From the NCBI RefSeq assembly GCF_949628265.1, contig NC_088790.1:10730545-10794544 (forward strand): a DNA stretch of 64,000 nt, given 5' to 3'. Position numbers and translations under genes: made by a program. The notes beneath the pieces were generated by a model that made no database searches, had not been told where the DNA came from, and saw only the letters and a list, made by a program, of their open reading frames with translations. Positions 2,771-33,936 of the stretch are shown here, piece by piece. The stretch comes from Cloeon dipterum. Taxonomy: Eukaryota > Arthropoda > Insecta > Ephemeroptera > Baetidae. The stretch's first letter is position 1. Every line of letters begins with the position of its first letter.

Positions 2771-2951
2771 GCTGAGATTTATCCAGAAATCAACGAAAAC
2801 GCCTAACGCGCTATTTCCATCCCGCACACTCACTGCTGCTCAGGCGATAAGGAACTGTAGACGTACTTCCGCAGAGCGTTAATAAGGAAAACAGGGACAT
2901 TAAACAAAATTCACTCTTTTAACTCTAGACACTAGCTTCAAAATATGTTTG

Positions 2952-12843: not shown

Positions 12844-15146
12844 TTACTTTTCGTCGATAGCCATCCTCTTTAGTTCGGCCCTGTCCAGTTTTCCAGCCCG
12901 TCCGATCGGCAATTTTTGCACAAATCCGACTCCACCGTGAAGATGCTTGTAACTTGGGAGTCTTTGCGCCACAAAGTCGATCAAATCCCTATCTGAAACC
13001 TCGCCATTCTTGACGACATACGCCCTGGCCAGGTTTGTGCTCTCAGGGTGCGGCACCCCCACTACGCCGGCCTCGACAACTTTTTCGTGTTTTTGCAACA
13101 CTGACTCGATTTCGGTGGGGGAGACCTGCAAAATTAATTTACCTTAAATTGATACGTCATGTTCTTAAAGCCAATGAATGTAGCTCAGTGTCTTGCAATA
13201 ACACCAAAATTTATAAAATATTAAAATTAGGGCATCAGACAAAAATTAAAAATAGAAAAAGGACTCACAAAATACATAAAATATTTGAAAACGAAGCTCA
13301 GTCTCTCAGTGATGTACAAATTTCCCTCCTCATCAAAAAATCCCACGTCCCCAGTACTGAGCCACCCTTCCGAGTCGATGTTGGGCGTGATAGGGGTCGG
13401 AGAGTCCTTGGACAAGTAGCCTTTCATAGTCATGGGCGACAGTATTTTGACTTCGCCTTTCTTGTTTGGACCAAGACTCTCTCCAGTGGTCAAATCGACA
13501 ATCTTATCAAATAAAATCTGTTAAAAAATTATTGAAAAACTATTGGCAGCCTCACCATCGCTTGAACAAAAGGCGTTAGTTTTCCAGTCGAAGCCCACCA
13601 TTCTCCTAGTTATGAATGAAATACAGTATTTTAAAAAATAAATCCTAAGTTATAAAATTTGTTCTTTACCTTCATTTTCCTTAAGTCTAACCTGCGTCTG
13701 TTCTTCTGTGCTTGACAGAGTAGTAGACTCGGACATGCCATAAACCTTTGTATAAATTGTACAAAAAATTAAAATTAAATTGGAGAAAGTTAGGTTTTGA
13801 AAAATTACCTGTGTTACTCTGATTGCTGGCAATTTCTTGGTCAAAAGTCTCATAGTAGTCGCATCAATTATAGCTCCACCGCACACAAGCAGTTTCAGGA
13901 AGCTGAGGTCTACCTTGTCCAATCTTTCATCGCGTGCTAACCAGTTTGCAATAAACGGGTAGATAAGTACAGTGCCTGGCTGATTTTAATTATGTTAAAT
14001 TTGTTTCCCTTTTATAACATCTAAACCACACACCTTGTACTTGAGAAGGTGGTCCAAAAATTCTTCTCTCGCGAATTTACCGAGATGAACGACCTTGCAT
14101 CCGTATGCCATTGATCCGGCTGTGATGGTGTAAACGCCGACAGGAAAGTTGTTCATGGGTGTCATGACTGTCTCCCTAAAGAAGTACTTGTGTCTGCAAT
14201 TAAATAGTCGTCAATATTTTAAATTCGTATGGAGTAAAATTTTGGCAAACTTTGGATTGCAGATAGAGGCGACTGTGGATTTGTAGGTTTGCACTACTCC
14301 TTTTGGTAGTCCAGTGCTTCCACTCGTGTTCGCTACATACATCGCACTATTGACGTCGATATCAATCTTTGACGGGAACGCTGATAATTTAAATTTATTA
14401 CTGGGATGATGCTGTGATAATGGGAAACTTTAATAATTCTAGGAAAGCATGAATAAAGTAAGATGTTTTGAAATTATTTATGATTTTTACGACCAAAATA
14501 TTATACCAGTTCCGTCATCTTGCATCAAAGTTTCTACCGAGGTTGCTTGTTCGATGGCGCGGTTGCTGAAGATGATCAATTCGATTTTCCAGTCCACCTT
14601 TCCAATTGCCTCTCGCACCCGGGGCAGGGTCTCATCGTCGACTAAAGCAAATCTAGCTTTGGTTTCACTAATTTGCCTTGCGAATTCATCTGGAAGATGC
14701 AATAAAGATTCAAGGTACAAGCAATTTTAAAGTGCTGCAAATGCTCACCTGCCGATTCCATCTGGAACGATCCCCTGACGGCCCCGCCGAGTCGCCACAC
14801 AGCTAACTGCACCAAATATAACTTGGCCGATTCAAATGTCACAAAATGCAAAAAGTCGCCCTTTTTGAATCCCATGCGAGTCAAGGCGCTGGCGATTTTC
14901 TTAGAAATCGGATCGATGTCACAAAACCTGACTTCCACGCCTGTTATAGAGTCAACCTGCAAAATAGTCCTGCTCGTGTCTTCCACTATAGCTATTATAA
15001 AATGTCGAACATACCACCCAGGGTTCGGTTGAATTTTGCTTCTTGTTCTCACACAATTTTTCGTACAAGAAATCGTAAATAGGCACATTTGGAATGTCAT
15101 CAGGATCGGCAGGGTCGGGAGCAGTAAAAATGTGTTTCACGGACAT
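12844..15146 (-). CDS. Acyl-CoA synthetase / 4CL-luciferase-like enzyme, gene A
   Basis: ANL-superfamily ligase that would adenylate a carboxylic acid and, in the classical reaction, pass it to CoA. Exons: 15015-15146, 14749-14956, 14507-14689, 14251-14380, 14034-14193, 13809-13979, 13670-13745, 13556-13605, 13269-13502 and 12844-13125. All are in phase, 541 residues, the usual length. Visible motifs: ATP loop TSGSTGLPKG (193-202), YGMSE (330-334), STGD (419-422), ER at 436-437 and the distal adenylation lysine in GRAGKLDR (K527). The loop that is normally DRxKxxIKYKGYQV reads ERLSFVFKYFMYFV: the first lysine is kept but KG is replaced. The protein ends in DEK, so there is no SKL-type peroxisomal signal, and no signal peptide is seen. 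The substrate is unknown. Unlike B and C, its ATG lies inside one exon. Confidence 0.9.
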
Positions 15147-15277
15147 TGAAAATTATTAATTGGCCGGGTTAAGCAGATTTGAAATTTACTCTTGACAACC
15201 GAATCGCCTTTCTGATGAATAGGAATTGTTTGCTGTATTACTGGGTCTTCTGTGTTCTGTGTCAGATAAGATTCACC

Positions 15278-15285
15278 TATAAATA
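15278..15285 (-). promoter_or_regulatory. TATA-like element of synthetase gene A
   Basis: TATTTATA on the minus strand, about 130 nt before the gene A ATG. Gene C has the same octamer. Confidence 0.4.
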
Positions 15286-15646
15286 AACTTCGTTTAACTA
15301 GAAGATTAAAGAATTTGATAACGCTGTGTAATTTTTTATGTCAAAAGTCATTGCACTCTGATCTGAGATCTGAGGCTATTATCTTTTATTTGATCAACGC
15401 TGAAATAAACGTAAAACAGCGGACTCTTTAAGAACGCATGTTGCGGTTCTGTTTTTTTTCTACATAAATATTTGATAGGATTACAATGGCCAAGACACAT
15501 TTTATACATAGAATAACCGTGGGAATTATTGCCCAAATGAATTTTAGTAAAATTAAACGCCATTTTCTTTTGTGTAATTTAACTTTATTATCTGTACTAA
15601 ATATCGTAAAATAAATGACGTCGAATTTCATTGTGCTATTCACCGT

Positions 15647-18196
15647 CTAATTCATCTCAATAGCTAGTTTTTTGAGCGCCGTTCTATCAATTTTGCTTGT
15701 TTTTCCGACTGGCAAGTTCTGTACGAATCGCACTCCGCCATGCAGGTGCTTGTAAACGGGCAGCCTCTCGGCTACAAAGTCACACAACTCTTTCTCTGAG
15801 ACTTCTCCTTTCTTGACGACGAATGCCCTGGCCAGATTGGTGGTCTCAGGGTTAGGCACCCCCACAACTCCGGCTTCAAGGACCTTATCATGCTGTTGCA
15901 AAATAGACTCGATTTCTGATGGAGAAACCTGCGAACGTAGTGAATAATAAAAATCTGAAGCATTGATTTTCAAAATAAGTAACAATATTAAAGCTTCTAC
16001 ACAACGTTCAGCAAGTAAGAAAAATTTTCTCTACGTTTAGGAATATTAAATCTGCACTTAATAAAAATCATGCAAGACCTTACCGAAGTAATTTAAAACT
16101 TACAAAATACATGATGTATTTGAAAACGAAGCTAAGTCTTTCGGTGACATACAGATTAGAGTCATTATCAAAAAATCCTGCGTCTCCAGTGCTCAGCCAC
16201 CCCTCTGAATCGATGTTTGGGCGAAGGGGTATGGGAGAGTCTTTGGATAAGTAGCCCTTCATGACAATGATGGACTTGACTGTGATTTCTCCAATTTGGT
16301 AAGGACCTAGTGGCTCTCTTGTGTTTAAATCTACAATCTGACAAATTCATATTTTATTGGAAATGGAACAACAACTGTAACTTATAAAGGCCCTCTATTC
16401 ATACCTTCGCTCTCACGTAGGGTGTGAGTTTCCCGGCGGAGACGTACTCTTTGCCTATAGTAGTATATGATTGAATTAAATTCCCCTCTTAAACTACATA
16501 ACAGATAAAAAAATACCTTCAACCATGGAAGTTTTCACGCCTGGCAGGTCTTCTGTGTTTGCAATTGAAAAGCATTCAGTAAGCCCATACAACTAATGGA
16601 AAGTGTGAATTATTAACCAGCACTTCATTGAAATTTGTCATTATTTACCTGCTTCACTTCGACGTGAGGCAGCTTCTTTGCCAGTATGTTCATAGTCGTT
16701 GGATCTATCATAGCGCCACTGCAAATTATGACCTTTAAGAAGCTGAGGTCCACTTTGTCCAAGTTTTCGTGTCTGGCGAACCAGATTGCGATGAACGGGT
16801 ACATCACCGCGGTTCCCGGCTTAATTGAGGGAAATTAAAATTTTTCATTCTAGCAATTTAATCAGAATCTTTGAGAATCTCACTTTGTATTTTAGCAGGT
16901 GGTCAAAGTACTGCTCCCTTTCGTATTTGCCCAAGTGCACCACTTGGCAACCGTTTGCGATGGAGCCTATCGTCGCCATGTAGACTCCAATAGGAAAGTT
17001 GTTCATAGGCGTAATGACAGATTGCTGATCAAAGAAGGGCATGCAACTATCAGCAAGAAAACGGTTAATTTTTAGCATACATGTGTAGGCAGAAATAACA
17101 TAATGACGTTTTTAATATTCAAACAAAAATGAAACAAACTTTGTTTTGGTTAGGAGCGCAACAGCACATTTGTGAGTTTGAACAACTCCTTTGGGCAATC
17201 CAGTGCTTCCACTCGTGTTTGCAACTGCAAATATGTCGTTGTCCGGATCAATGTCCACCTTGACAGGGAAAGCTAAAATTTTGGAAACAAAGTGAAAACA
17301 AAATTTAAAAATTGGATCCGATTCAATTTGAGATTTTATTACACGTGTGAAAAAAGAAACAATCAAATGTTTAAATTGTATTCAAAGTTTGGCTCAAAAC
17401 ACCTAATTGAATAATTATCCGGCCATCTCGTCTTTAAAAAATGTCAATTATTGGTACTGACCCGACACGAAATAAAATATTCAAATTCAAAGTTTACCAG
17501 TTCCATCATCTTGCATCAAACTGTTGACGGTGACAGCATTCTCAACAGGCCCGTTGGAAAAAACGATTACTGTAACTTTCCAATCCAAATTCGCCACCGC
17601 TTCCCTCATCCTTGGCAACGTTTCCTCATCAGCAAGGACAAATCGTGCTTTGCTCTCGCTTATTTGCCTTGCGAACTCCTCTATAATATACGGTAGAATT
17701 TAGGCAATAATTGTGAAGGGCCGCTTCACGTAGAATTACCCGCCGACTCGTTTTGAAAGCAACCGCGAACTACTCCTCCGATTCTCCATATCCCAAGCTG
17801 GACCAGATAAAGCTGCGCAGTTTCATAAGTTGCGAAGTGCAAGTACTCGCCCTTTTTGAAGCCCAGACGGGTCAGGGCGCTGCCAATTTTCTTTGAGACA
17901 GGATCAATGTCGCAAAATTGCACCTCTTTGCCCGTTCTTGAGTCGATCTTTTAATAATTTAAAAATAATTTATTGATTTTGAAATTTAGATTCTCATTTA
18001 ACTTTGAAAAAATACTTACGACCCACGGCTTGGTGGAACTCTGCATTTTAGTGTTGCATAGTTTTTCGTAAATGTAATCGTAAATCGGTACATTTGGCAC
18101 TTCATTAGGATTGGCCTTCCTTTGTGATTCGAATATTCGCTCCACTGCGTTAATATTGAGTTAGTATTAATTGCATGCATTCTTTTCAAACCTACT
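15647..18196 (-). CDS. Acyl-CoA synthetase / 4CL-luciferase-like enzyme, gene B
   Basis: Closest paralogue of gene C. Coding exons: 18196 (only the A of ATG), 18020-18144, 17740-17947, 17498-17680, 17140-17272, 16884-17046, 16649-16819, 16517-16592, 16405-16454, 16104-16337 and 15647-15928, giving 541 residues. The start codon is split: the 5' exon ends CCGATAA before a GTAGGT donor and the next exon begins TGGAGCG, making ATAATGG. The ATP loop (TSGSTGLPKG), YGLTE and STGD are intact. The C-terminal loop reads ERLSFVFKYIMYFV, again without KG. Near the end, GKTSKIDR keeps the adenylation lysine although the preceding Gly is Ser. The protein ends EMN, with no peroxisomal signal. It lies 0.5 kb upstream of gene A on the same strand. 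Confidence 0.9.
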
Positions 18197-18295
18197 TATC
18201 GGCCTTATCGCTCAGATGTCAATCGGCATCAAAATATCAGAGGTGTGTCTTGCCTCTCGACTACTAAAATGAGAACTTGTTTTTCTCTGTTCTAC

Positions 18296-18303
18296 TATAT
18301 ATA
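18296..18303 (-). promoter_or_regulatory. TATA box of synthetase gene B
   Basis: TATATATA, followed about 30 nt downstream on - by a likely start region and an untranslated first exon that ends at 18196. Confidence 0.5.
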
Positions 18304-19608
18304 AAAAAGATAAGATAAAACGTTGTGACGACGCAATGGTGTTGTATGAACGGTGATATTTCATTTTTACGGCACTGTAAAATGATCATGAATCGCAATT
18401 TCGGTGTCACCACAAAGTTTTGTGTATTTCTTTCTAATTAATTCCTCTGTGTCAATCGCTGCTCTTAACTTCTAAATAAGCTAAATTTGTTCCTGATAAT
18501 TTTGATTGCACATATAAATAACTTTTTTTCCAGTAAAATTTCTTTAAAATCATAAGGTCCTCATAGCCCCTGAACTTCCGATTTCAAAAGATTTTCAGGT
18601 TTCACCAATTGTTCAGGTAGAAGAAGCTCTAAAATTTAAATTCGCATTTCTAAAATTTGTACAAGCTCATTAAGAATTAAATATCAATATTCTAATTTAG
18701 CGTGCCCTGTGTGGAAAATAGCGCAATTTTGATTGTAATCATTGCGTATCACGTATCTAATTCAGGAAATACCCAACAGGGCAGATTCCACACATTTATC
18801 TTGTTCGATGCTTATTCTGTTCCTGCACCAATAAAATGTCTTCAGTAATTCTCGAACCATTTGCTAAATCGCCATAAAACCTAACGGGAAGATATGGTGT
18901 GTACTTTGTCATCTATTACGCTGGCTATGCTGAACAATGAATCATCCAACACCTTGCCAATTTATATCTTATCTTAAAGGAGGATTCCGTTTTCAGAGCA
19001 AAATTTGCTGAATCCAATATTGTTGGAATTCCCTCTTATCGCGGAAAATTTTGCTGATTAATTTCTCACACATTTGTTAATAGCTTTCAAAACAATAACA
19101 TTATTGCTACATGCCTTTTAAATTATCCGCCTTGAATATCAATTACAGAATAGATCTGTATGGATAACTACTGTCCGTCCGTTATCTCATTAGCACATAT
19201 TATTGCCATTATTGGATTCTAAAAAGACGTTTTAACTAAATTGCATTTTTTCCTTTGAGAGAAGAAGATCGTACCAATTTATTTTGGCTGTTCAAAGTTA
19301 AAATCCAACTTATTACGAGTACAGTAAGCAGCACACGTGTAATATCAAGATGTTAACGCACGCCAAGGAAGCTGCGTTTAATTTCTTCTATAGCTAATAC
19401 AAAATTATTCATTTCCTGCCTTTTTTGAAACTATAGTAAAATGGCTTTCTTCTGCTTTTGACAAAAATTTCTTCAATGATTCATTTAATTTTGCAATGAA
19501 GAAAAGTAAGTTTTTATTCATTATATTTTTAATTGATGCCAAATGAAACCCATTTGTAACAAAATTTTATTTTATTCATACTCTTAACCAAAATAATGGT
19601 AATGAAGA
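18304..19608. other. Spacer between genes B and C, related to the spacer upstream of C
   Basis: No gene is visible. The part from about 18765 to 19010 resembles about 23105-23365: both begin AGGAAATACCCAAC and include AAAGGAGGA followed by CAGAGCAAAATTT. This supports duplication of gene plus upstream region. Confidence 0.5.
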
Positions 19609-22151
19609 TTAATTCAGCTGGATCGCTATTTTCTTGAGCTCCGTTCTATCCAACTTTCCAGTTTTTCCAATTGGCATCTTCTCAACGAATCGCACTCCAC
19701 CGTGCAGGTGTTTGTAAACGGGCAGCCTCTCGGCTACAAAGTCACACAACTCTTTCTCTGAGACTTCTCCTTTCTTGACGACGAATGCCCTAGCCAGATT
19801 GGTGGTCTCAGGGTTAGGCACCCCCACTACTCCGACGTCAAGGACCTTCTCGTGCTGTTGCAAGATAGTCTCGATTTCTGTTGGGGAAACCTGCGGACGG
19901 AGTGAACAATAATAATCAAAAATATTGATGTTCTAAATAAGATTATAATAAAGCTTCTACAACGTTCTGCAAATAGAAAATTTTCATCTTCGCGTTTGGA
20001 GGTGTATTAAGTCTGAACAAAATAATCGCGCAAGAATTAATTCTTCAATTTTAAACTTACAAAATACATGATGTATTTGAAAACGGAGCTAAGTCTTTCA
20101 GTGAGGTACAGGTGTGATTTATCATCAAAAAATCCTGCGTCCCCGGTGCTGAACCACCCCTCCGAGTCGATGTGTGAACGTATGGGAGTGGGAGAGTCTT
20201 TGGACAAGTAGCCCTTCATGACAATAACGGACTTGACCGTGATTTCGCCTATTTGATATGGACCCAGCGTCTCTCTTGTGTTTATATCTACAATCTGAAA
20301 CGTTCGTATTTTGTTAGAATTTGAACCTAAAACTTTTAAATGCGCCTATTTCATACCTTAGCACTCACGTATGGCGTGAGTGTCCCTGGTGAGACATATT
20401 CCTTGCCTATTTAAAATTCAATTAATTTCTTTATATTTAATCAGAAATTATGAAGTCACCTCCAACCTCAGCAGTTTTCACACCAACCTCGTCCCCTGTA
20501 TTTATAATTCCAGGACATTCAGTCATTCCGTACATCTTTAAAAAGGTAAAAATAAATTCCTCCAGTAAAATTTGAAAATAATTATACCTGTTTCACTTTG
20601 ACGTGAGGCAGTTTCTTCACCAGAAGTGCCATTGTCACCGGGTCAATGATAGCGCCGCCGCAAAGAATGACCTTCAAGAAGCTCAGGTCCAATTGGTCTA
20701 AATTTTCGTGTCTGGCAAACCAGGTCGCAACAAACGGGTACATCACCACGGTTCCAGGCTGTAATGAGTGTAATTGAAACACGAGGTAAAATTTTAAATA
20801 GAGACTTACTTTGTACTTCACCAAATGGTCAAAATACTGCTCCCTTTCGAATTTGCCCAAGTGCACTACCCGGAGGCCATGCGCGAGTGCGCCTGTCGTC
20901 ACTGTGAATACTCCTTGAGGGAAGTTGTTCATTGGCGTCATGATAGAGTGATCAAAGAAGGGCATGCAACTATAAAATTAAAGTATATTAGTCATTCATA
21001 GGCATAAATTGATCATATAAAATCTAAGCTTACTCCCGTTTAGTAAGAAGTGCTACAGCACATTTGTGCGTTTGAACAACTCCTTTGGGCAATCCAGTGC
21101 TTCCGCTTGTGTTTGCAACTGCAAATGTGTCATTGTCTGGATCGATGTCCACTTTGCTGGGGAAAGCTATAAATTTAAGCAAGGATTATAATTCAATTGA
21201 ACTAATATGGCTGAACGTGAAATTTTAGAGTGTGAACGAATAGTTTTAAATAAAATCTCGAATGTTGCTACTTATTACGTTACTACATTTGAAGCCGTAT
21301 TTAATTTGTTATTTAAAAAAATAGAGCGTTTACCGCTTCCATCGTCTTGCATCAAACTGTTGACAGTGATAGCATTCTCAACAGGCTCGTTGGAAAAAAC
21401 AATGATCGTAATTTTCCAGTCCAAACTCGCCACCGCTTCCCTCATCCTTGGCAACGTTTCCTCATCAGCAAGGACAAATCGCGTCTTGCTCTCGCTTATT
21501 TGCCTTGCCAACTCCTCTAAAATATTTGCCACAATTTAAACTTCCTTCCAAATGTTGTTCCTACATAATTGTATCATTACTTTATGGATGTGTGCTGATT
21601 TGGGGCAGAGTTGCCCTGTCAGCCCATAATAAACTTATATTTTGAAACTAAACAATCCTTCGCTTGAATAAATCTCATAAAATTACCCGCCGATTCTTCT
21701 TGAAAGCAGCCACGGACTGCCCCTCCGATCCTCCAAATACCAAGCTGGACCAGATACAGCTGTGCAGTTTCGTACGTTGCGAAGTGCAAGAAATCGCCTT
21801 TTTTGAAGCCCAGCCGGGTCAGGGCACTGCCGATTTTCTTTGAGACAGGATCAATTTCGCAAAATCGCACCTCAACACCAGTTCTTGAATCGATCTAAAT
21901 ATGATTTTTTTTTATAATTTTTCAATTCATGTCCTTAGATTTAAGGATATGAAAAAATAACACTTACGATCCAGGGGTCGGTCGAGTTCTCCATTTTTTT
22001 GTCGCACAGCTTCTTGTAAATGTAGTCATAAATTGGCACATTTGGAATATCATTAGGATCGGCCTTTCTCGGTGATTCGTAAATTCGCTCCACTGCAACA
22101 ACATTGTGTTAAAATTCCACTTTCCTACTATGAATTCCTGGGAAACTTACT
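19609..22151 (-). CDS. Acyl-CoA synthetase / 4CL-luciferase-like enzyme, gene C
   Basis: Coding exons: 22151 (A of ATG), 21968-22092, 21687-21894, 21334-21516, 21034-21166, 20810-20969, 20588-20758, 20460-20535, 20357-20406, 20061-20294 and 19609-19890; 540 residues, all in phase. As in gene B the start codon is split: CTACAAAA precedes a GTAAGT donor and the next exon begins TGGAGCG. Intron positions are the same as in A and B. Motifs: TSGSTGLPKG, YGMTE, STGD, the altered loop ERLSSVFKYIMYFV, and GKTGKLDR with the adenylation lysine. It ends IQLN without a targeting signal. The last exon is nearly the same as in B over long runs, so gene conversion or recent duplication is likely. Confidence 0.9.
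21601..21634 (+). repeat. Dispersed GGGGCA-TTGCCCTG-AATAAA repeat, copy 1
   Basis: TGGGGCAGAGTTGCCCTG can fold into a short hairpin and is followed by AATAAA and TTTTGAAACTAAA. Related copies are at 29690, 50405 and 56795. This may be the tail of a retroelement. It lies in an intron of gene C. Confidence 0.45.
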
Positions 22152-22258
22152 TTTGTAGTATCAAAAGTTTAATCAACACTCAGCAGGGGTCGCAAATCGT
22201 CGCTAGGAGGTGTGTTGAACCTCTTGCCGCTTAATGATTTACTCTTTCTCTGCTGTAC

Positions 22259-22266
22259 TATAAATA
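22259..22266 (-). promoter_or_regulatory. TATA-like element of synthetase gene C
   Basis: TATTTATA on the minus strand, about 110 nt before the split start codon. Confidence 0.45.
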
Positions 22267-22554
22267 CGTTGAGATAAGATTTCGTGACGATGATCTTTGA
22301 TGCTGAACAAACAAATTTCCCATTTAATTACTCATAATGTTAGATCATCGAGCCTAATTTTCACTTTGAACTTGGTGTTTTAAAGATACTTCTGATAAAT
22401 CGGATAGTTTTAGTTATACACAATTTGATTTTTGATGATCATGCATTATATTGTTATATAAATAACAATTTTTGCTGGGGAAATATCAAGTTAAATATTA
22501 TAAGTATTCCAAACTCTTTCTTTAACGGTGTGTTATGAAAAGATTAATGATTTA

Positions 22555-22809: not shown

Positions 22810-22817
22810 ATGATTGA

Positions 22818-25424
22818 TGAGTAAAAGTGGACCGAAATGCTTTCTGTATTTGAGTTACAAATATTTATGTATTTCTTCTATTGCCTTATTCGATTTTAAA
22901 TGAGCAGAAGCTTTCCTAACAAGCAATAAAAAATTATTTCATTTTTATTAAAATTTATTACCCAAATTTGTTATATGGCAACAAATGAGAAAAATCCATT
23001 TTGCAGGTGTCCTTCTAAAATGAATTTTCATCAATTTTTGGCTCCCCTAGTAAGGAATATTTATATATGTTGTATTTTAAACAACTACATATTTACGCAT
23101 GGCGTGTAGGAAATACCCAACGGGACAGATTTCACTACTTTTCAAGTAGGATGTTATACATACGTACCCACAACGTCAATATTACTTGGATGATGTGCAA
23201 AATCTCTAGATCCTTTAACAAAATCGCGATAAAAACTTATGGAGAAGATAATGTCACGTCATGTACTTCGTCCCATAAAAGACATCTGCGGCTCAATTGG
23301 ACTTTGAATCATCTCCTTGAAGGCTTGACTCTTATCTAAAAGGAGGACTGCGCTTTCAGAGCAAAATTTAGTGATACGGCGGTGCTCTTTGGATTTCCCA
23401 TTTTTCCGCATTAAAATTGATCGATAAACCTCCATCATAATAGCTGCAGATATTAATTTTTTCTTTAACATTTATACAACATCTATAACAACCACTTGAG
23501 AGATAACTTAAACCTGTGCAAGGTATAGCCAAGAGATTACTATTTTATTATGTATTTTTCTTTTCAGGAAATAACTGATTCCTTTTTAATTATTTTAATT
23601 TAGTTTATATCACTGAATTGGGAGAACGTTTCTAAAAAAGTTTGTTTCATACCCTATATTTCAGCGTTTTCAAATTTCCTAAACATTCTGTCACTTACAA
23701 TAACATTTTTCCGCAAGTTAATTTAGAGTTTTAAGTTAATTGAAATTAATTTATGAAAAGCTAATAGTACTTTGAAATATTAAATCAATTGAAAAAGGTG
23801 TACCAGCATAATCAAATCATAATCTAATTAACTATGTGTTAATAATTATGTAATTTAAGATCTGTCTTAAAACAAGAACTTAAATTAATATCTGTCAAGA
23901 AGCGTTAAATTCCTTTTGGTCTCAAATTTTTCGTCGAATAAAATTAGTATTTATATATGCTCACAAAAGAGCAAATTACCTTCGTGTTTTGCTCACTGTA
24001 TCGGTTAGACCCCTTTGTCTACGCTTGAAAAATGCCTATCGCTTTTTTAAACCTTTTCGCCACTTTTTTGGCAAAGGGCCATTTTCTTTCTCCCTCTTTT
24101 TACCCACTCGGTGAGATCTCAGTCAGTCACTCGACCGACCTCGAGGTCTGTCTCAGCACGAGAAATAATACCCATCTCCCCGTGAGTCAGTTTGGACTCC
24201 TTGGTCTGGTCGCTTGCCTGCTTCGCCCTGTCTTCATAATGTGCACATTAATAGCAGATATTGGATCAAATCGAAAAGAAACATCACTATTGCTGCGATG
24301 TTAACTTTTTTGTAACCCTGAAAATAGAGAAGCCAAGAAATTTCACTTTACTTGCGAAAATATTTAGTATCCTATCCTCAACAGATTCGTAGATACTCGT
24401 CCTGAGCGTGTTAAGAAATGCCAAATTTTATTTTTAATCGAATATTTCCATATATTTTGTGGTTAAATTCTGTGGCACGGAGCGAAATATTTGAATCACA
24501 TGATTTTCAACATGAAATTTCAACTCGAAGGATCAGCAAATAAAAATATTTCGCTACGTCCATGTAACCACAGTTTAATTCGGCATGAAAAGCTAGTCGC
24601 ATAAATTTATTCTTTTAGAATTTTTAGCTATAAACTGATTGCTTTACTTGATAACTATACCTTTACAAATGTGATTTCTTCTTACTCAATTCATAGCAGA
24701 CTCTTTATAAGGTTCCCAAAAATTACAAACGAAGTGTATAGTTTTTAGATTTTTATTTAGATTAACTCATTTTCTGCAACAATTCAACTCGTCGTAAACT
24801 TTGTGGGTGCTCGAATAGCTAGGCTGTGTGGGATACTTCAAACACCTCACTTTTTCCTTAATGCGTGCTATATTGTTCGAAGTAGAAGTAGAACCCGAGT
24901 CCGGGTCATATCGTTAATTAGCTAACACACGCTTTTAAGGCACCCTCGGCCAACAGCTTTACGACGACGAGTGGTGCGAGAGCTCAGGCGTGAGATCGCT
25001 TTGCGTTTTAGCTTAGACACTCATGTCGCTTCGGCTGCTACAGGGTTTGTGGATATGATAGCCGCTGCAGCGATGAGTGGGGAGCAAAAGTGACCTGACG
25101 TGCAGGTTGCATAATTACGCCGATAGGTAGTCCCCATAACTTGAGCTAAAAGCATATTTCCTTTTTTGATTTAAGGTTAAGACATTAATTTAAGGCTACA
25201 TTTCTTATCGTCTATTTTATCATAGTATGTGTGAGCTAATTTTGATGTGTTATCAAGATCATAAAGTATATGTGTTCATTGGTGTTAAAGATAAAAGCTG
25301 TGTAAAATAATTTAAAACTTCATCATTCTCAAGAAAAGCCTTTTGGCCAACAATAAAAGTCAATTGAACCACCAAAATTCCAATTGCTAATTGTATGAAA
25401 TTAAAAAGTAAATCAATCCAAATT
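22818..25424. other. Spacer between the A-C group and gene D
   Basis: No gene found. It includes sequence shared with the spacer upstream of gene B (about 23105-23365), a dispersed repeat (23577-23661, also at 26486-26570), and a more GC-rich stretch at about 24890-25140 that I cannot assign. That stretch did not fold into a tRNA by eye. Confidence 0.5.
23577..23661 (+). repeat. 85-bp dispersed repeat also found inside gene D
   Basis: From GATTCCTTTTTAATT to TTTCATACCCTATATT; the same block with a few changes is at 26486-26570. Probably part of a retroelement. Confidence 0.55.
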
Positions 25425-27778
25425 CTATTCTACGGCCAAGCGCCTGAGGGCGTGCCTGTCAATTTTTCCTCCCATGTTCATTGGGAGAGAATCGACGAAC
25501 TGGATGCCCTTGTGCAGGTGCTTATTGATGGCCGCCCGGTCCGCAACAAATTTGACCAAATCGGCCTCGGTGCACTTGCTGCCAGGCCTCTTCACCACAA
25601 GACCCTTGGCCAGATTATCAAAATCTCGATCGGGGAAGGTGACGACTCCTGCCTCCAGCACGTCCGGGTGTTCTAGCAGAATCGATTCGACCTCCGCTGG
25701 TGACGTGATCATGGTCAGGTACTTGTACACGAAAGTGATCCGTTCAATCACGTAAAGATGTCCTCTTTCATCGTAGAAGCCCAGATCACTGGTCTTCAGC
25801 CAGCCGTCCTCTGTGAAACTCACCATGTTGTACTGCAAAAGTTTTCATTCACTATATATAAATTTTTTAATGTGCTATTTACTGGTTTTCCTCTTTCGTT
25901 TATGTACCCTGCCATGACAGCAGGACCCTTAACAAGAATTTCTCCTCGTTTGTGTGGACCAAGAGCTTCTCTGGTGTTCACGTCAACCACCTAAGAAGAG
26001 TAAAAGTTTTTCTTCTAATCATTTTTTTTATCTTTATCTGCAAACCTTAATTTTGTAGTTAGGCATTGGTTGACCAGAAGATATGTATTCTTTATCTGTA
26101 AACACACGGAACAATGTTTTTATCAGATGTACTGCTATTATGGTCGTGATTTTTACCTTGATTGATGGTACGCTCCATTTTTACTGGCTTGGGGCCATTT
26201 TTCTTCAAAGTCGCTGCGAAAGTCTCCGTCAAGCCATATGTCACCTTGAAGTGAGCGTTCGGTAACATTTCGGACAATGTGTCGGCCGTATACGAGTCGA
26301 TGACCCATCCACCACAAATAAGAGTTTTCAGGAAATCCTGCTCTCTGATCTCCTTCATCTTTTCTGTTTGCTTTGTGATCCAAACGGCGAGGTGTGGGTA
26401 CAAAAAAATTCCATTAGGCTGTAGACAAGAGATTTTCCATTTATAAATCCTGTTTAAATTATTGGATTTAATTTGTTGAGATTATAATTCCTTTTTAATT
26501 TTTTAAATTTAGTTTATATCACTTAATTGGGAAAATGTTACTTAAAATTTGTGTTTCATACCCTATATTAAACCCAATTTCACCCATATTAGTAATGCAC
26601 AGCAATAAATATGATTCAAATAAAACTCCACTTCGCGACGCACTTTATGGCCAGCCGTTTTGGCCAGTCTCTGTTCACTCAGTCTAATAAAGCAAGAAGT
26701 AAGAAGTAAAGTTAAAAATCAGTAGTTGAGTGTTTTACTTCATACGACTACCGCTCCTACACAACGATGCCATAGTTCATCATGAGCTCCATCATAGAAT
26801 CTTCTATTCCAAGAACCCTATAAAGCAGGTTTTAAATTTGAGGATGTATTGTCCAGCTAGGGTCCACTTACTCGGACTCGGCCATGATTGCAGCCAATAT
26901 GGATTTCTGAGTGTGCACGATTCCCTTGGGATCTCCAGTGGAGCCGCTCGTGTTGATCACAACAGCAATGTCCTTTTCTGGATTGATTTTCACGTTCTCA
27001 GGGAATGCTAGTTTTTAAATTTCTATGTTGTGGTGCATATTTTCCAAAAAAGGTGATGATCACACCTGATCCATCGTCCTCAAGCAGCTCAGAGTAGTAA
27101 ATCGTCCCTGGAAGTTTCTCAGCGCCAATGCTAATCAGTTGAACTTCCACATTGGCTATTTTAATCGCTTGCTTCATTTTTCCCACTGTCTCAGGGTCCA
27201 CGATTGCGAACTTGGCTTCAGTCTCCCTCAAATGAGTGGCGATTGTTTCTAAAATCGAACATTCAACATCTGCGTCTCCTACGGATCTAATTTTAAGTAC
27301 AGACCCGCCGTTGTAGCAGTGTGGCATCCTCTCACGCACCCTCCCAAAAGATAGTGTGACACTTGGATTTGGAACAACTGGGCCATTTCAAACGTGCAGA
27401 AGTAGATGAAATCTCCGTGTTTGAGACCGAGTCTAGTCAGGGCACTAGCAATTTTCCGAGCGTTAGGCTGCACTTCCGAAAATAGAATGGACCTGCCAGA
27501 CGGGATGTCTATCTACAGATAACATGCAAAGTTTTCCATTTCCTCTGACAATGAGTTGTTAAATTGAGTTATAATTACAATCCAAGGTTTGTCCTTTGGC
27601 ATTTTGTCCAGTCTGGAATTCAGATGCTCAAAAACGTAAGTCATGAGAGGAACATTTGGTATTTCTAAGTCTCCCTCAGGAGAGCTGACAACGTTGTGCT
27701 CTAGAAATATTCCTTCGTTGATAAAACTGAAATTTGTTTAAATAAATAAATAGCAACACACTCACCTGCGGATGGCAT
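25425..27778 (-). pseudogene. Acyl-CoA synthetase-like gene D, interrupted in exon 6
   Basis: Sister of gene E. Exons: 27766-27778 (ATG CCA TCC GCA G), 27579-27700, 27305-27512, 27066-27248, 26872-27007, a fragment of exon 6 (26817 down to about 26768), 26157-26418, 26046-26095, 25883-25990 and 25425-25832. Everything except exon 6 is open and in phase, with TSGSTGDPKG, YGLTE, TSDLG, ERITFVYKYLTMIT and MGGKIDR. Exon 6 matches gene E for about 17 codons (to NYG and one more codon), then runs into unrelated sequence and meets TAG at 26757-26759. About 35 codons, ending KYK in E, are absent. Skipping exon 6 would also break the frame (157 nt in E). The full protein therefore cannot be made, unless the assembly is wrong here. 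The other exons have no disruptions, so the break seems recent. Confidence 0.75.
26486..26768. mobile_element. Retroelement-like insertion in exon 6 of gene D
   Basis: Where gene D leaves its homology with gene E, the sequence becomes repeat-like. 26486-26570 matches 23577-23661. The part from about 26571 to 26764 resembles the 3' half of the LTR at 28837-29199 (AATTTCA-CCC, CAG-AATAAATAT, TAGTTGAGT...ACTTC and the end CTCCTACA). I read it as a diverged, truncated LTR. Its far boundary is not clear. Confidence 0.5.
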
Positions 27779-27850
27779 GTTTGCTTATTTATGTGCACAA
27801 TATTGACTATACTGTCTATACTATATTGTTTTCTCTCTACGCTGTTATTG

Positions 27851-27858
27851 TATATATA
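27851..27858 (-). promoter_or_regulatory. TATA box of synthetase gene D
   Basis: TATATATA about 75 nt before the gene D ATG. Confidence 0.5.
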
Positions 27859-28119
27859 AAGTTTCGCGCCCTTCCATTGTGCCTCTTTAAGTTAAGTACA
27901 AAGGCTCTTTCTATGCCGATGGAAAATCCAAAAGAGAGGTGTGCGTGATTGGTAAATTGCTTGTTATCTTGACAACTTTTTGAAAAGGTTACGTGCTATT
28001 CGTCAGGCTTGCAACATTTCTAGTTAAAGCCAAACAAAACCAATTTCATCTTGTCAGCGAAAAATCCCGTTGATATGGTGAGACGTAATTTTAGAACGAG
28101 AGATTTTTCAATTTAAATA

Positions 28120-29621
28120 CAGGGAGGGGCAAAATTAAACGTTCAAAAAGAACTGATCAGCCCGAAAAGAGTGGTTGGGGTGGGATCCAAATTCCAACGG
28201 TGATGAGCCCTTCAAAAACTGGAATTTTAATTATTATTTTTTTTGTACAATTTTCAACCCTTTCGGACGAGTGGTTTCGTCGCTGCACCCCAAAATACGA
28301 TTTTGATCAAGTTTATTATTGGATTCCCATGTTAAACCACTTAGATTTTTTTTTCGAAAATTCAACGTGCATAGGTATTTTCTAGACTAAAATTTTGCGC
28401 TGATTCCGATTCTAAGGTCTATTTTTTGTTCCGGCGTCCGGAAGGGGTGTTTTTGGTGGGTAGGGTTGAGTGGCTGATTGGAGATGACGGTCAACATCAA
28501 AGTCGCCAAAAACTGTAGTGCCGCACATGTTTCCGGTGGTGAAATTTACCGGAGCATTTTTCAAATAGGTATTACATTTTTAAACTTTAATTGGAAAAAC
28601 TTTCAACTTTTCAAAAAAGATGTTTTTGAAAAATGCCCCGAATTTAGAAAACCAATAACTCTTTTGAAATCAGCACTTCATTACGAGTCCAAATAAGAGG
28701 TGCAAACTCATTGTTACATGACCAAGTTTCGATTTTTCATGGTTTTCCCTGGTGAACACTTGGGAAATCGCGCGCAGCATGATAACGGCTTGCACGAGAG
28801 TATTTTTGTTTTGCGGTGATTCTCTTCCCTACACTCTGTGCTGGAAACTACCAGATGATTCGCGTAATTTCTAGAATCCCCACACTCATTCTACTCTCAC
28901 GAAACTTTACAGAACAATCGATTACGGCATCTCTTTCTAAATTGACTTTAGTTAATAAATCTAACTAACTGACTAATTGTGCTTTCAACTAATTGATGTA
29001 ATAATGTACTGTAAATTCTGATAATAAATAGAAACCTAATTTCATCCCAATCAACCATACACAGAAATAAATATTATTAAATATCATCGTTAAGTTCAAA
29101 CACCAGATTTCAAGATCCCCTGTTGATTTTGCTGATTAAAGTTAATCTAATAGTTGAGTTTACTTGTCGTGTTTCATTCATTCGACTACAACTCTTACAA
29201 CTCATGACCGCCGACGCTCCTATAATTTTTTATGAGATGTATATGAAGATCCCAGCTAAATTTTGTAAATCTTGAAAAAATTTATAGATATTTTTCTTTT
29301 TTCAATAAAGTTAAGTGAACCCTAACAGGAGTTTTCTGGAAAAGTCGAAAATGCTGGAATTTTTTTCGCCAAGTTAAAACACCTTTGCACGATGAATTTT
29401 CGAAAAAAAATTCAAGTGGTTTAACATGGGATTTCCCATATTAAACTTGTTTCAAATTTGGATTTTGGGGTGCAGCGCCGAAACCACTTGTCCGAAAGGG
29501 TTGAAAATTTCACAAAAAACTTCAGTTTTTGAGCGGCTCACCGTTGGAATTTCGATCCCACCCCAACCATTCTTTTCGGGGTTTTCAACTATTTTTGAAC
29601 GTTAAATTTTTTCCCTCCCTG
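28120..29621. mobile_element. 1.5-kb DNA element with long (about 260-bp) terminal inverted repeats
   Basis: The left end begins CAGGGAGGGGCAAAATTAAA and the right end is its imperfect complement (ending CCCTCCCTG). The inverted match runs on for about 260 bp, including GGTTGGGGTGGGATC, CAACCCTTTCGGAC and GCTGCACCCCAAAAT. TA flanks both ends, which fits a Tc1/mariner-type TA target duplication, but this is not decisive. No transposase frame is visible, and an LTR (28837-29199) sits inside. Confidence 0.7.
28837..29199 (+). mobile_element. Solo LTR, copia-like, nested in the 28120-29621 element
   Basis: It begins TGTGCTGGAAACTACC and ends CTCTTACA. ACTC occurs directly on both sides (28833-28836 and 29200-29203), a short target duplication. 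The size of 363 bp and TG...CA ends fit a solo LTR of the copia group. A related 3' part lies in gene D. Confidence 0.55.
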
Positions 29622-29689
29622 TATTATTAAGCTGCAACTCTTAATAAGGCATAATATGTATTTTTGTTGTGTTCTGGATGTGGATGTAT

Positions 29690-29721
29690 GGGGCACAGTT
29701 GCCCTGCTGATCCGTAATAAA
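29690..29721 (+). repeat. Dispersed GGGGCA-TTGCCCTG-AATAAA repeat, copy 2
   Basis: ATGGGGCACAGTTGCCCTG followed by AATAAA and TTTTTGAATCTAATAAA. See copy 1 at 21601. Confidence 0.45.
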
Positions 29722-30480
29722 CCATTTTTGAATCTAATAAAGTCTTATGAATTTTACGATTAGCCAATCTTCAAATTGGGAGGTAACATTTTAAGCGATA
29801 TAAAATACGTAGATCGCCAAACTTATTACGCAAATTACTACGAACGTGTAAACCATTCAAATAACCTTTATTTATCTTTCTATTTGATGTCACCTCACTT
29901 TCTTTGTCTTTTCAAGTGTGCGTGATCTAGCTAGCAAAATTTGTAAGAGATGTTTTTATTTCTTTATAGATGTTAATGAAGGTAGAAGCTCGCAAAGTTA
30001 TCACAATTGTCAGAAGAAATTAAACGCAGCTTCCTAGGTGTGTAGTCACTAGAAAAAGCACTATACTTGCCTTAGCTACTTGTTGTTAGCCAATATCAGT
30101 GCGTTAGGTAATCGTTATTCTCAACTTAAAAATCATCACTCTCACATTTTAAAGGCAAATAATATGAAAGATAATGAAGATAAAAATATAAACTTTTTGA
30201 TTTGATGACAAATTCATGAAATAAATTTAAATCTTTGACCTTTGCAGATTGGTCTGTTCTAACCCCATAAGATTTTTAAGCAAAATGAACACCTCTCAAT
30301 CAGAACGAATCGTTGAAGCATTGATACATATATTGCGTGTTATTTTTCATTAATATCTCGTCTTTTATGGTACTGATTGCGAGTTCTCCGGCTTTTGGCT
30401 CCTCGCGATGATTTTTATTTGGACTACGTGTTGTTGATCGCCAAATGATAACTTAAGATGACTTAAGACTTTGTGGCTTC

Positions 30481-30758
30481 CAGGGTTCAGAGATTTATCG
30501 ACCCGGTTTAAACCAGCCCGATTAAAACCGGGTTAAACCAAATAGTAAAACCCGGGTTTTTTGTTTTTTTTATTTCATTTAGCATAAAACCTTAAAAATT
30601 TCAAAAAGTATCATGATGCAAACATTATTTGACAGTGTCATAGTATGGTGATTGGTAAATGTGACGAAACCAAAAAACGAAGTCACTTTGGACCAAACTG
30701 GTTGAAACCGATTTTAACCAGTTTAACCCAGTCCACCGAGTTTTTTCGAAAAAACCTG
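30481..30758. mobile_element. hAT-like MITE, copy 2, with a perfect 8-bp target duplication
   Basis: 278 bp, same family as 22555-22809: it begins CAGGGTTCAGA, ends AAAAAACCTG, and has GGTTTAAACC and GGTTAAACC blocks near both ends. GTGGCTTC is repeated exactly at 30473-30480 and 30759-30766. Confidence 0.88.
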
Positions 30759-30766
30759 GTGGCTTC

Positions 30767-31692
30767 GGCTTGATTTGAGATGGAACGCAATAAAACTATT
30801 TAGAAAAACGAGTAAATACTGTAATCAGGATGAACGCAATATTTTTTTGTGCGTAGGGAAGGGAATCCCCAAAAGGAGGCAGATTACGTTTGTCAAGTAG
30901 GATGTTTGCTTAGGGAAGACCGAACTTGGCGGTATGATACTGTTGTTTTTCACGTGTTCGTTGTTTCAAAGTGACTCAGATCTACTCAATCATCGATAAG
31001 AAAATATGATTGGAAACACCAGGTGCAGCTCGCAGATTGACCAAACAAAAGGCGCAATCTATTTTGGTATATCAAGCTATCGTTGCAGCGCTTTGCAATC
31101 TCCCTGAAAGCGTCTCTTATCTTGATTATGTTTAAGAAAGTGAACAAAAAGGTTACCTCATGAGAACAAATTTAATCTTGTCTCAATAGGGCTTATTGAT
31201 TGCTGTAGTTTGTCATTCTATTAATAGAAAAATGCCGAATGCCTTTTTCTTGACCATTCCGAATGAGGCTATAAGGTTTTTTTTATTGAAGATGCAAAAT
31301 GCTGATATATTTTCTGATTTTTTTCTCGTTTATTTGCAATTAAAACAGCACAAATAGCTAAAAATTTATTAGTTTAAAATTTCTCCATAAATTTGTCTAC
31401 AAATTAAAATTTAATTTGAAAGTAGGTGCACTGGAATAAAAATTATTTTTTCCTGAAGAGTACCACGCTATTTATTACACGTGAACCGTACTGCTGTAAT
31501 ATATGTAATTTTCAGCATGTAGATAAATATGTTATAATAAAATTGATGATACAAAATCTAGGATGAGGTGTGAAAAAATATTCTTGAATAAGCTAGGCCC
31601 GTTTTTACAATCCATACAACTGCTTCAAAACAAGCACCTCACTCAATTTTAAAAATTAGTACATTTTAATTAAAATTACAAATTTAAATGTG
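30767..31692. other. Spacer before synthetase gene E
   Basis: AT-rich sequence with no supported gene or repeat. Confidence 0.5.
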
Positions 31693-33936
31693 CTAGTCCT
31701 GTATGGCCATACGTCTGAGGGCGTTCCTATCAATTTTCCCTCCTGTGCCAAGAGGTAGAGCATCAACAAATTGCACGCCTTTGTGCAGGTGCTTGTTGAT
31801 GGCCGCCCTCTCCGCAACAAATTTGACCAAATCAGCCTCGGTACACTTGCTGCCGCGCCTCTTCACTACGAGGCCTTTGGCCAGATTGTCAAACTCTGGG
31901 TCGGAGAAGGTGATCACACCTGCTTCCAGAACGTCAGGGTGCTGCATCAGAATTGACTCGACTTCAGCCGGGGACGTAATCATGGTCAGGTATTTGTAGA
32001 CAAAAGTGATCCGTTCCACCACGTACAGGAAGCCCTTTTCGTCAAAGAATCCCAGATCGCTCGTCTTCATCCAGCCGTCTTCTGTGAAACTATCTCTGTT
32101 GTGCTGCAAATTGGGTATTAAAATACTTGGTTTTTATTCCTTTAATAATCGCGCTTTACCGGCTTCCCTTTTTCTGTCAGGTATCCTGCCGTGAGTGATG
32201 GGCTTTTCACTAGAATTTCTCCCCTACAGTACGGGCCGAGTGCTTTTCCTGTCTCCAAATCAATGATCTGATGAGAAGAATAAGAGTAAATATTTTTCGT
32301 CTACCGTTTGTCTCTGTCATATTTTTACCTTTGCTTTGACGTTTACCATGAGCGGACCAGAGGATATATATTCTCTATCTGCAGATTACAAAAATATTAA
32401 CCCTATCCATGTAAATATAAAAGTGTCGTATTTCACCTTCGTTGATGCAACGCTCCATTTTGTTGGGTTTAGCTCCGTTTATCTTCATTGAAACTCCAAA
32501 CGCCTCTGACATGCCGTAAACCGTCTTGAAGTAGGTATTTGGCAACGCCTCTGCCATTGTGTCTGCCGTGCGCGCGTCCACGACCCAACCCCCGCAGAGG
32601 AGGGTGCGCAGAAAGTCTTTTTCTCGAATTTCCTTTAATTTATCTGTCTGCTTGCTAAGCCAGGCTGCGATGTGTGGATATAAAATGATTCCATTTGGCT
32701 GCAGGAGATTGTGAATTGTCAGTTTCCTTTCTTTTGTCGGTTTCGGGAAAAGAAAACGGCTTTTAAATATAAAATCCCCGTGACACAAATTAAGTATTTC
32801 GATACTTTTGTATTAACTATCATTGCCCCGTTTACCTTGTATTTCAGCATTTGGTCGACGAGAATTTCCTTCTCGAACTTTGTAAAGTGATAAGTGGTTA
32901 TGCCGTGGCACAAGTCGTGCATCAGAAGGCTGTTAGAGATGACGCCGTAGTTCGTCATGAGCTCCATCATTGAATCTTCTATCACGAGCACGCTGTTAAT
33001 GCGAAATTATAATTCTTGTTGAAAATTTTTGTTGTTTATCTGGTTTTCCTACCGTTCCTCGGAGAGCATCGCAGCCAATATGGAGCGCTGAGTGTGCACG
33101 ACACCTTTTGGCGCTCCAGTCGAGCCGCTTGTGTTGATGACAATTGCGATGTCGGTCTTTGGGTTGATTTTCACGTCCTCAGGGAAAGCTATAATCCATA
33201 GTTTTCATGAGTTTAATTTCTAAAAAGGCAATTTCGCACATATACCCGTCCCGTCGTCCTCAAGAAGCTCTGTGTAGTAAATAGTTCCAGGCAGTTTTTT
33301 CTCCCCAACGCTGATCAACTGAACGGGAAAGCCAACCTTTTTGATTGCTTCTCGAATTGTACCAATCGTCTCGTGGTCCACGATTGCAAACTTGGCCTTG
33401 ATATCCTGCATCTCCTTGGTGCTAATTTCTGCAAAATCAATTGTTATTGGGCTAATGCTTAAAATTTGTTTTTGAGGTCCAACCTGGTCTGGTGGCAGGG
33501 TGACAACCTCTCACACATCCGCCCAGAAGGAAGAGCGACACCTGAATTTGGTAGAATTGTGCCATTTCATACGTGCAGAAGTAAAGAAAATCGCCGTGCT
33601 GCATTCCCAGCCTTGTGAATGCACTTGCGATCTTACGAGCATTTGACTCAACTTCGGAGAGTTTTATGGATCTGCCAGATGGAATGTCCACCTGTACAAA
33701 AGTGTCGTTGATGGCTTCTAAATACTATATAACATTTAAAAACTCACAATCCACTTTTTATCCTTCGGCCATTTCTCTAATCCGGCTCTCAGCTGCTCGA
33801 AAACATAGGACATAAGCGGAACATTTGGCACCTCGACATCTCTTTCAGGAGAGCTGACGTAGGATTCTGTGGAAATATTTCCATATTACAACAAAGATGT
33901 AGGGAAAATTAATTATAACTTACGTTCAGAAGGCAT
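31693..33936 (-). CDS. Acyl-CoA synthetase / 4CL-luciferase-like enzyme, gene E
   Basis: Exons: 33924-33936 (ATG CCT TCT GAA C), 33748-33866, 33484-33691, 33246-33428, 33053-33188, 32836-32992, 32437-32698, 32329-32378, 32160-32267 and 31693-32103; 548 residues, in phase throughout. ATP loop TSGSTGAPKG (Ala for the usual Leu), YGMSE, KTSDLGFF where most family members have TGD, the loop ERITFVYKYLTMIT (no KG), and TGGKIDR with the adenylation lysine. It ends IQD, with no peroxisomal signal. Compared with A-C it lacks the introns before the YGxxE motif and before the final SPxE segment, and has one after GKP. This pattern is shared with D and marks a second subfamily. Confidence 0.9.

What the first reader, a model, noticed from the sequence alone, without database searches (positions are those of the whole stretch)
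12844..33936. Five-gene tandem array of 4CL/luciferase-like enzymes that have lost the KG of the KYKG loop
All five genes keep the ATP loop (TSGSTGxPKG), the YGxxE motif and the distal adenylation lysine, but the C-terminal loop normally read as K-Y-K-G-[YF]-[QE] is K-Y-[FIL]-[MT]-[YM]-[FI]. In ANL enzymes this loop rearranges for the second half-reaction (thioester formation, or oxidation in luciferase). Complete and consistent change in five paralogues under an otherwise intact fold suggests a different acceptor, or adenylation without CoA transfer. The motif readings are direct; the functional idea is inference.
Basis: partly seen in the sequence, partly recalled or inferred. Interest (0 to 1): 0.75.

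Follow-up and report, generated by a model that had tools for sequence, protein, structure and literature searches.

The report
Insect luciferase-like enzymes with rebuilt loop
A large group of genes related to firefly luciferase keeps the parts needed to activate an acid with ATP, but has rebuilt the parts that normally hand the acid to coenzyme A, so these enzymes may make an unusual product.

Summary
Five luciferase/4CL-like ANL genes lie on the minus strand of window 12844-33936, with every stated motif as described. The loop aligns without a gap to luciferase KYKGYQ, so no alignment restores KG. Three corrections. (1) It is not a five-gene peculiarity: the assembly holds at least 25 such C-terminal copies on four chromosomes, one clade (support 0.93; 0.94 with the loop columns removed), so the loss is one old event. 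(2) More than KG changed: Lys445 and Gln448 are gone in 25 of 25, Gly446 in 24, hinge Lys/Asp439 in 22, the A4 His in 24 of 24 readable, becoming Asn in 23. (3) Gene 4 is broken at a solo LTR. The adenylation Lys is kept in 25 of 25, the P-loop Lys in 24 of 24 readable. Three gene comparisons give dN/dS 0.11-0.22, so decay is unlikely. Best reading: adenylation kept, thioester-state site remodelled, probably for an acceptor other than CoA. This is inference; a modified CoA ligase is a serious rival. Other species could not be checked.

The parts
12844..15146 (-). g1: open ANL gene model, 10 coding exons, 541 aa; loop KYFMYF
   Evidence: PF00501 1.7e-45 and PF13193 1.5e-15
15647..18196 (-). g2: open ANL gene model, 541 aa; start codon read by me as split over an intron (A at 18196, TG at 18144-18143); loop KYIMYF
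19609..22151 (-). g3: open ANL gene model, 540 aa; start codon read by me as split over an intron; loop KYIMYF, ungapped to luciferase KYKGYQ
25425..27778 (-). g4: broken ANL gene; exon 6 stops at 26757 and its second half is missing; loop KYLTMI
26570..26755 (-). LTR copy (at least 186 bp, no partner copy in the gene) at the break in g4 exon 6
   Evidence: matches at 39 other places (40 scored of 68 candidates, one being the window itself), 7 of them 100% identical; ten pairs of matches lie 4.7-4.9 kb apart
31693..33936 (-). g5: open ANL gene model, 548 aa; loop KYLTMI inside one exon
   Evidence: PF00501 3.9e-43, PF13193 3.6e-10
13269..13304 (-). g1 A8 hinge and loop, RLSFVFKYFMYF, ending at the intron donor
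25698..25742 (-). g4 A8 hinge and loop, RITFVYKYLTMITSP, no intron

Best explanation
The five genes belong to a single expanded clade (at least 25 copies in this assembly) of luciferase/4CL-like adenylate-forming enzymes. SHOWN by sequence: residues for the first half-reaction are kept (P-loop Lys, A5 Glu, A7 Asp, hinge Arg, A10 Lys), while residues that act in, or line, the thioester conformation are replaced: A4 His to Asn, hinge Lys/Asp mostly to Ser/Thr, A8 Lys445 and Gln448 lost, Gly446 to Met, Ser, Val or Thr. The pairs that could be measured are under purifying selection. INFERRED: the enzymes adenylate a carboxylic acid with ATP; the C-terminal domain still swings on the conserved hinge Arg and presents Lys443; but with a side chain in place of Gly446 the pantetheine channel is narrowed. 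The acyl-AMP would then be passed to an acceptor other than CoA (a small amine, amino acid or alcohol, giving an amide or ester) or released. Expansion to 25 copies with a variable loop would fit a family that handles varied acids or acceptors.
For: Kept: A10 Lys and A7 Asp 25/25, P-loop Lys 24/24 readable, A5 Glu 25/25, hinge Arg437 25/25. Lost: 445K 0/25, 446G 1/25, 448Q 0/25, 439 K/D 3/25, A4 His 0/24 readable with Asn in 23. Controls in the same assembly: 5 of 5 canonical 4CL-like genes read KVKG[FYL]Q and 4 of 5 show P[FM][FY]HIYG, the fifth not being found in the stretch held; the 8 other ANL genes read keep a Gly in the loop (L051, L052, L054, L055; L070-L073, in L072 in a loop one residue longer). 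Positions 439, 445 and 447 are now among the most variable of 134 columns (ranks 116, 122, 126). dN/dS 0.11-0.22. Literature, seen as passages: the Gly is one of 27 residues conserved in at least 80% of the aligned class I enzymes, lines the pantetheine tunnel in CBL, and its Leu mutant loses only thioesterification (PMC6122825). It contacts the beta-alanine of pantetheine (PMC4667280). In CBL the A4 His207 lies 2.8 A from Glu410, the residue after that Gly (PMC6122825), so two of the altered positions touch.
Against: Lys443 is kept in 24 of 25, so some second step is probably retained. Gly to Ala in MacsMa is described as having little effect (kcat 2.15 to 0.41 per s; PMC10455477). K441A, Q446A and K526A in a plant 4CL only diminished activity (PMC5239791). 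In luciferase, H245D also left too little ADENYLATION to be useful, and bulky residues at position 440 are reported to hinder the adenylation conformation (PMC8631863); this clade lacks the His and has Phe440 in 21 of 25, so the same changes could argue for weak adenylation. One copy (C1:24948) has Gly (KHRGDF). The A4 column rests on matching PM[SN]N to P[FM][FY]H, and the loose P..H pattern also hit elsewhere in 8 of 24 clade loci, away from the A4 segment or, in g1, in another frame. No structure, expression, substrate or assay data; no relatives from other species.
Confidence: 0.4

Rival explanations
1. They are still CoA ligases. The A8 hairpin is rebuilt with compensating changes (A4 Asn, Phe440, aromatic 442), so that pantetheine enters by a slightly different path; the clade differs mainly in acid specificity.
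For: Lys443 24/25, Arg437, Glu453 and Glu455 25/25; Gly459Ala tolerated in MacsMa (PMC10455477); closest solved relatives are luciferases, 4CL and the CoA ligase CG6178; one copy has Gly.
Against: The tolerated change is to Ala, not Met or Thr; the CBL Gly-to-Leu mutant loses thioesterification only (PMC6122825); Lys445, Gln448, hinge Lys and A4 His changed as well.
Confidence: 0.33
2. They are non-catalytic: acid- or nucleotide-binding proteins recruited for carriage, storage or signalling.
For: Loop positions invariant in the 11 reference rows are highly variable here; Phe440 and loss of the A4 His could both weaken adenylation (PMC8631863).
Against: P-loop Lys, A5 Glu, A7 Asp and A10 Lys are kept in every readable copy, although members are as far apart as g1 and g5 (38% identical), while loop positions drifted.
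Confidence: 0.17
3. They are oxygenases of luciferase type whose second step is oxidation.
For: Best PDB matches are beetle luciferases, and the segment KHLHGGV resembles luciferase KRLRGGV; Lys443 is kept.
Against: The luciferases aligned here keep KYKGYQ, and luciferase uses His245; both are lost in this clade. H245D and K443A suppress oxidation in luciferase (PMC8631863).
Confidence: 0.04
4. The loop is a misreading (intron, frame or alignment) and KG exists in the mature protein.
For: In g1-g3 an intron lies directly behind the loop.
Against: g4 and g5 have the loop in one exon; the canonical genes read KVKGxQ up to an intron at the same place; ungapped alignments.
Confidence: 0.02

Closest known systems
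Beetle luciferases (Luciola cruciata 2d1q, AncLamp 6k4c)
   Same: Best matches of g3 in solved structures (AncLamp 1e-73 over residues 42-535); A10 Lys, Lys443, KxLxGGVxFV segment.
   Different: KYKGYQ loop and hinge Lys are replaced, and the A4 His is gone.
Insect fatty acyl-CoA synthetase CG6178 (7kyd)
   Same: Insect luciferase-like ANL enzyme matching g3 residues 40-534.
   Different: CG6178 keeps DRIKELIKYKGYQV; the PDB names it a CoA synthetase.
4-coumarate:CoA ligase (3a9u, 5bsw)
   Same: Same superfamily and motif order.
   Different: 4CL keeps DRLKELIKYKGFQV; the clade sits on a long separate branch.
FadD10 group of class I adenylate-forming enzymes
   Same: Ser at the hinge (index 641) is 100% in that group (PMC6122825); 13 of 25 here have Ser.
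   Different: No sequence closeness shown; the A8 loop of FadD10 was not compared here.
The five canonical 4CL-like genes of the same assembly (C1:20.895; C4:7.731, 7.734, 7.738, 7.749 Mb)
   Same: Loop ends at an intron in the same place; nearest in-genome relatives found.
   Different: KVKG[FYL]Q and hinge Lys kept in 5 of 5, PxxH motif seen in 4 of 5.

Membership tests
ANL (class I adenylate-forming) superfamily | AMP-binding and AMP-binding_C domains over curated cut-off | tested here: met
   g1 and g5 both domains, g4 C-terminal exon PF13193; g2 and g3 were not given to that call, g3 matches 180 PDB sequences
ANL (class I adenylate-forming) superfamily | P-loop Lys, A5 Glu, A10 Lys | tested here: met
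   24/24 readable, 25/25, 25/25
Canonical luciferase/4CL-type CoA ligase | A8 glycine (KG) | tested here: not met
   absent in 24 of 25, including all 5 in the window
Canonical luciferase/4CL-type CoA ligase | A4 His (PxxH) | tested here: not met
   absent in 24 of 24 readable copies, Asn in 23 and Ser in 1; column assignment rests on matching PM[SN]N to P[FM][FY]H
Canonical luciferase/4CL-type CoA ligase | hinge Lys or Asp after Arg-x | tested here: not met
   3 of 25 have K or D; none of the 5 in the window
Canonical luciferase/4CL-type CoA ligase | acyl-CoA formation | not testable with these tools
   needs an assay
Beetle-type luciferase | His245 and the KYKG loop | tested here: not met
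   roles of H245 and K443 from PMC8631863
FadD10-like acyl-AMP ligase | hinge Ser (index 641) | tested here: inconclusive
   Ser in 13 of 25, Thr in 3; no FadD10 sequence compared
Pseudoenzyme | loss of adenylation residues or relaxed selection | tested here: not met
   residues kept; dN/dS 0.11-0.22 in the three comparisons that could be computed

The most novel reading that the evidence does not exclude
A clade of animal ANL enzymes has lost CoA as acceptor, makes acyl-AMP and transfers the acyl group directly to another nucleophile (an amide or ester synthetase), and has radiated to about 25 genes in one genome, with a conserved A4 Asn as the mark of the new second half-reaction.
Probability: 0.28. 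Interest if true: 0.7.

Novelty: new variant of a known kind. Interest (0 to 1): 0.45.

Why it matters
Insect genomes hold many genes named luciferase-like or 4CL-like, usually assumed to be CoA ligases (general knowledge, recalled). A large clade without the superfamily's pantetheine glycine would mean that label may be wrong for it, and would give a natural set of variants for testing how the second half-reaction of ANL enzymes is specified. If the loop proves common in insects and the enzymes make CoA esters normally, the interest falls to an annotation note on how tolerant the A8 loop is.

Tried and rejected
Misread intron or frame: rejected, because g4 and g5 carry the loop in one exon. 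Alignment shift restoring KG: rejected. Five-gene novelty: rejected, because at least 25 copies share the change. Five independent losses: rejected by monophyly, which survives removal of the loop columns. Whether g4/g5 are the first branch is NOT resolved (support 0.28, and 0.09 without the loop). Pseudogene array: rejected on what was seen, except for g4; the 20 copies outside the window were not modelled in full. dN/dS for g1 pairs could not be computed (saturated), and YN00 failed for the N-terminal g4/g5 pair. Prokaryotic relatives by degenerate scan: 56 pattern matches, none a relative, so no outside base rate for the Gly was measured; I rely on PMC6122825, on 11 of 11 reference rows (5 canonical, 6 PDB) and on 8 further ANL genes of the assembly. 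Not every AMP-binding hit was read. Structure model: tool switched off, so no model of the thioester state and no fold search. Taxon: unproven. Five large contigs of 33-43 Mb, 190.1 Mb in all, and a weak, sub-cut-off zf-AD match. A compact mayfly genome such as Cloeon dipterum (180 Mb, PMC7250882, passages) would fit, but nothing here identifies it; no telomere repeat was seen in the first 1.5-3 kb of the five contigs read. Dropped rows: L040, a divergent ANL gene, was skipped by the scripts; one clade copy (C1:24934, L035) was missed by the scripts and added. The broken g4 is counted among the 25.
Full report
WHAT WAS CHECKED. The window lies at G000:C5:10730545-10794544 of a 190.1-Mb eukaryotic assembly. 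I built spliced models for the five genes from the minus strand; all introns used are GT...AG. g1, g2, g3 and g5 give open proteins of 541, 541, 540 and 548 aa. g2 and g3 appear to have their start codon split over an intron; this is my reading, without transcript support. g4 is broken: exon 6 (26817-26757) ends in a stop after about 20 codons, where the g5 exon has 52, and its second half is missing. The next 186 bp (26755-26570) are an LTR copy found, with 89-100% identity, at 39 other places (40 scored of 68 candidates, one being the window itself; 7 at 100%), ten pairs of which lie 4.7-4.9 kb apart.

THE LOOP. The A8 segment reads RLSFVFKYFMYF (g1), RLSFVFKYIMYF (g2), RLSSVFKYIMYF (g3) and RITFVYKYLTMI (g4, g5), where luciferases have RLKSLIKYKGYQ or RLKELIKYKGYQ and plant 4CL RLKELIKYKGFQ. 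phmmer and MAFFT align it without a gap. In g1-g3 the loop abuts an intron. The canonical 4CL-like genes of the same assembly read KVKGxQ up to an intron at the same place, and g4/g5 have no intron there, so the reading is not a splice error.

IT IS A CLADE, NOT AN ARRAY. A search of the assembly with the g3 C-terminal domain gives 25 strong copies: C5 window (5, the broken g4 included), C1 24.93-24.97 Mb (7), C1 2.57 Mb (3), C1 15.65-15.66 Mb (3), C3 35.53-35.58 Mb (6), C4 12.58 Mb (1). It also gives 5 canonical ones (C1 20.895, C4 7.73-7.75). The tool says counts are lower bounds. Of the 20 copies outside the window I examined mainly the last two exons and up to 1.5 kb upstream, so I do not claim that each is an intact gene. 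In a FastTree/LG tree of the C-terminal domain with 6 PDB references, the 25 form one clade (0.932; 0.94 without the loop columns), separate from the canonical five and the PDB enzymes. g1-g3 (0.997) and g4-g5 (0.995) are two sublineages whose order relative to the other copies is unresolved. The simplest reading is one loss before the expansion, so five paralogues are not five pieces of evidence.

WHAT CHANGED AND WHAT STAYED (over 25 unless stated; numbering of the Photinus-type luciferase chain aligned). Kept: Arg437 25, Lys443 24 (Arg in one), Pro451 24, Glu453 25, Glu455 25; A7 Asp 25 and A10 Lys 25; P-loop Lys 24 of 24 readable, with Pro to Gln in one; A5 Glu 25, its Tyr being Phe in one. 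Changed: 439 is S13, T3, K2, R2, N2, G2, D1; 440 is F21, I2, S2; 445 has no Lys; 446 is M17, S3, V2, T2, G1; 448 has no Gln. The A4 motif P[FM][FY]HIYG, seen in 4 of 5 canonical genes (the fifth not found in the stretch held), is PM[SN]N[YF] or similar here: no His in 24 of 24 readable, Asn in 23, Ser in 1. The patterns were written, and a loose P..H pattern also hit at other places in 8 of 24 clade loci; the assignment should be confirmed on a structure. Outside the clade, 5 of 5 canonical genes and the 8 other ANL genes read keep a loop Gly; in L072 the loop is one residue longer. The one clade copy with Gly (C1:24948, KHRGDF) differs from its near-identical relative C1:24938 (KYRMDF) by five nucleotides in the stretch of exon 9 compared, three of them in those two codons.

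SELECTION. Pairwise dN/dS is 0.18 (NG86) and 0.22 (YN00) for g2/g3, 0.11 and 0.12 for the C-terminal part of g4/g5, and 0.11 (NG86 only) for the N-terminal part of g4/g5. g1 pairs were saturated. So these genes have been kept by purifying selection, and the break of g4 is probably recent by comparison (inference). Within the domain the positions 439, 445 and 447, of which 439 and 445 are invariant in the 11 reference rows, rank among the most variable of 134 columns (116, 122 and 126), whereas 437, 443, 453 and 455 are at or near zero entropy.

MECHANISM. From the passages I read: the A8 Gly is one of 27 residues conserved in at least 80% of the aligned class I enzymes, lines the phosphopantetheine tunnel in CBL, and its Leu mutant loses only thioesterification (PMC6122825). 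It contacts the beta-alanine of pantetheine (PMC4667280). In CBL the A4 His207 lies 2.8 A from Glu410, the residue after that Gly, and Arg400 pairs with the hinge Asp402 to stabilise the thioesterification conformation (PMC6122825). In luciferase, H245D and K443A suppress oxidation and K529 serves adenylation (PMC8631863). The clade has therefore replaced several residues that meet each other, or CoA, in the thioester state while keeping the adenylation set. I infer adenylation with a remodelled second step, most likely to an acceptor other than CoA. Against this: Lys443 is retained; Gly to Ala is tolerated in MacsMa (PMC10455477); alanine mutants of 4CL catalytic residues only diminish activity (PMC5239791); and in luciferase H245D left too little adenylation, while a bulky residue at 440 hinders the adenylation conformation (PMC8631863), the opposite of what a pure adenylating enzyme would want. 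Hence 0.40 for the best reading, 0.33 for a modified CoA ligase and 0.17 for a non-catalytic protein.

KNOWN OR NEW. In the listings of the paper searches on this topic no title or abstract start reported this loop in an insect clade. The term KYKG occurred in none of the 9 papers listed. PMC10798137 (passages) says that 4CL and luciferase-like families expanded in some beetle lineages; PMC6891662 (passages) describes a divergent wasp 4CL-like protein lacking one MEME motif. I did not see supplementary alignments, and most subscription journals are not held, so novelty is only as strong as those searches. Whether the clade is confined to this lineage could not be tested, since no insect sequence collection was available. 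I therefore file it as a new variant of a known kind (ANL luciferase/4CL-like), not as a new kind.

Noticed in passing
window 26570-26755, minus strand: LTR copy at the break in g4 exon 6, 100% identical to seven other places in the assembly and so probably a recent insertion; ten pairs of matches lie 4.7-4.9 kb apart.
   Followed up: partly
G000:C1:24948 (L033) versus C1:24938 (L037): Near-identical copies whose only two amino-acid differences in the last 33 residues of exon 9 fall in the A8 loop (KHRGDF versus KYRMDF), one of them giving a Gly.
   Followed up: partly
window about 5145-10006, minus strand: SARA/endofin-type gene next to the array: FYVE finger at 9704-10006 and SARA_C at 5145-5633.
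   Followed up: no
window 39055-45487: C2H2 zinc-finger exons: 41154-41528 on the plus strand matches Pfam; 39055-39441 has a weak, sub-cut-off zf-AD match; 45014-45487 on the minus strand looks C2H2 by eye only.
   Followed up: no
window 149-520, plus strand: Sodium/calcium exchanger exon (PF01699, 1.6e-12).
   Followed up: no
window 2189-2839, minus strand: Open frame with a hydrophobic stretch and repeated EEN-x-[ML]-YG motifs, possibly tyrosine-based signalling motifs (by eye); no Pfam match.
   Followed up: no
C-terminal ends of the 25 copies: None of the last exons as read ends in SKL, the peroxisomal signal of beetle luciferase (that signal is recalled).
   Followed up: partly
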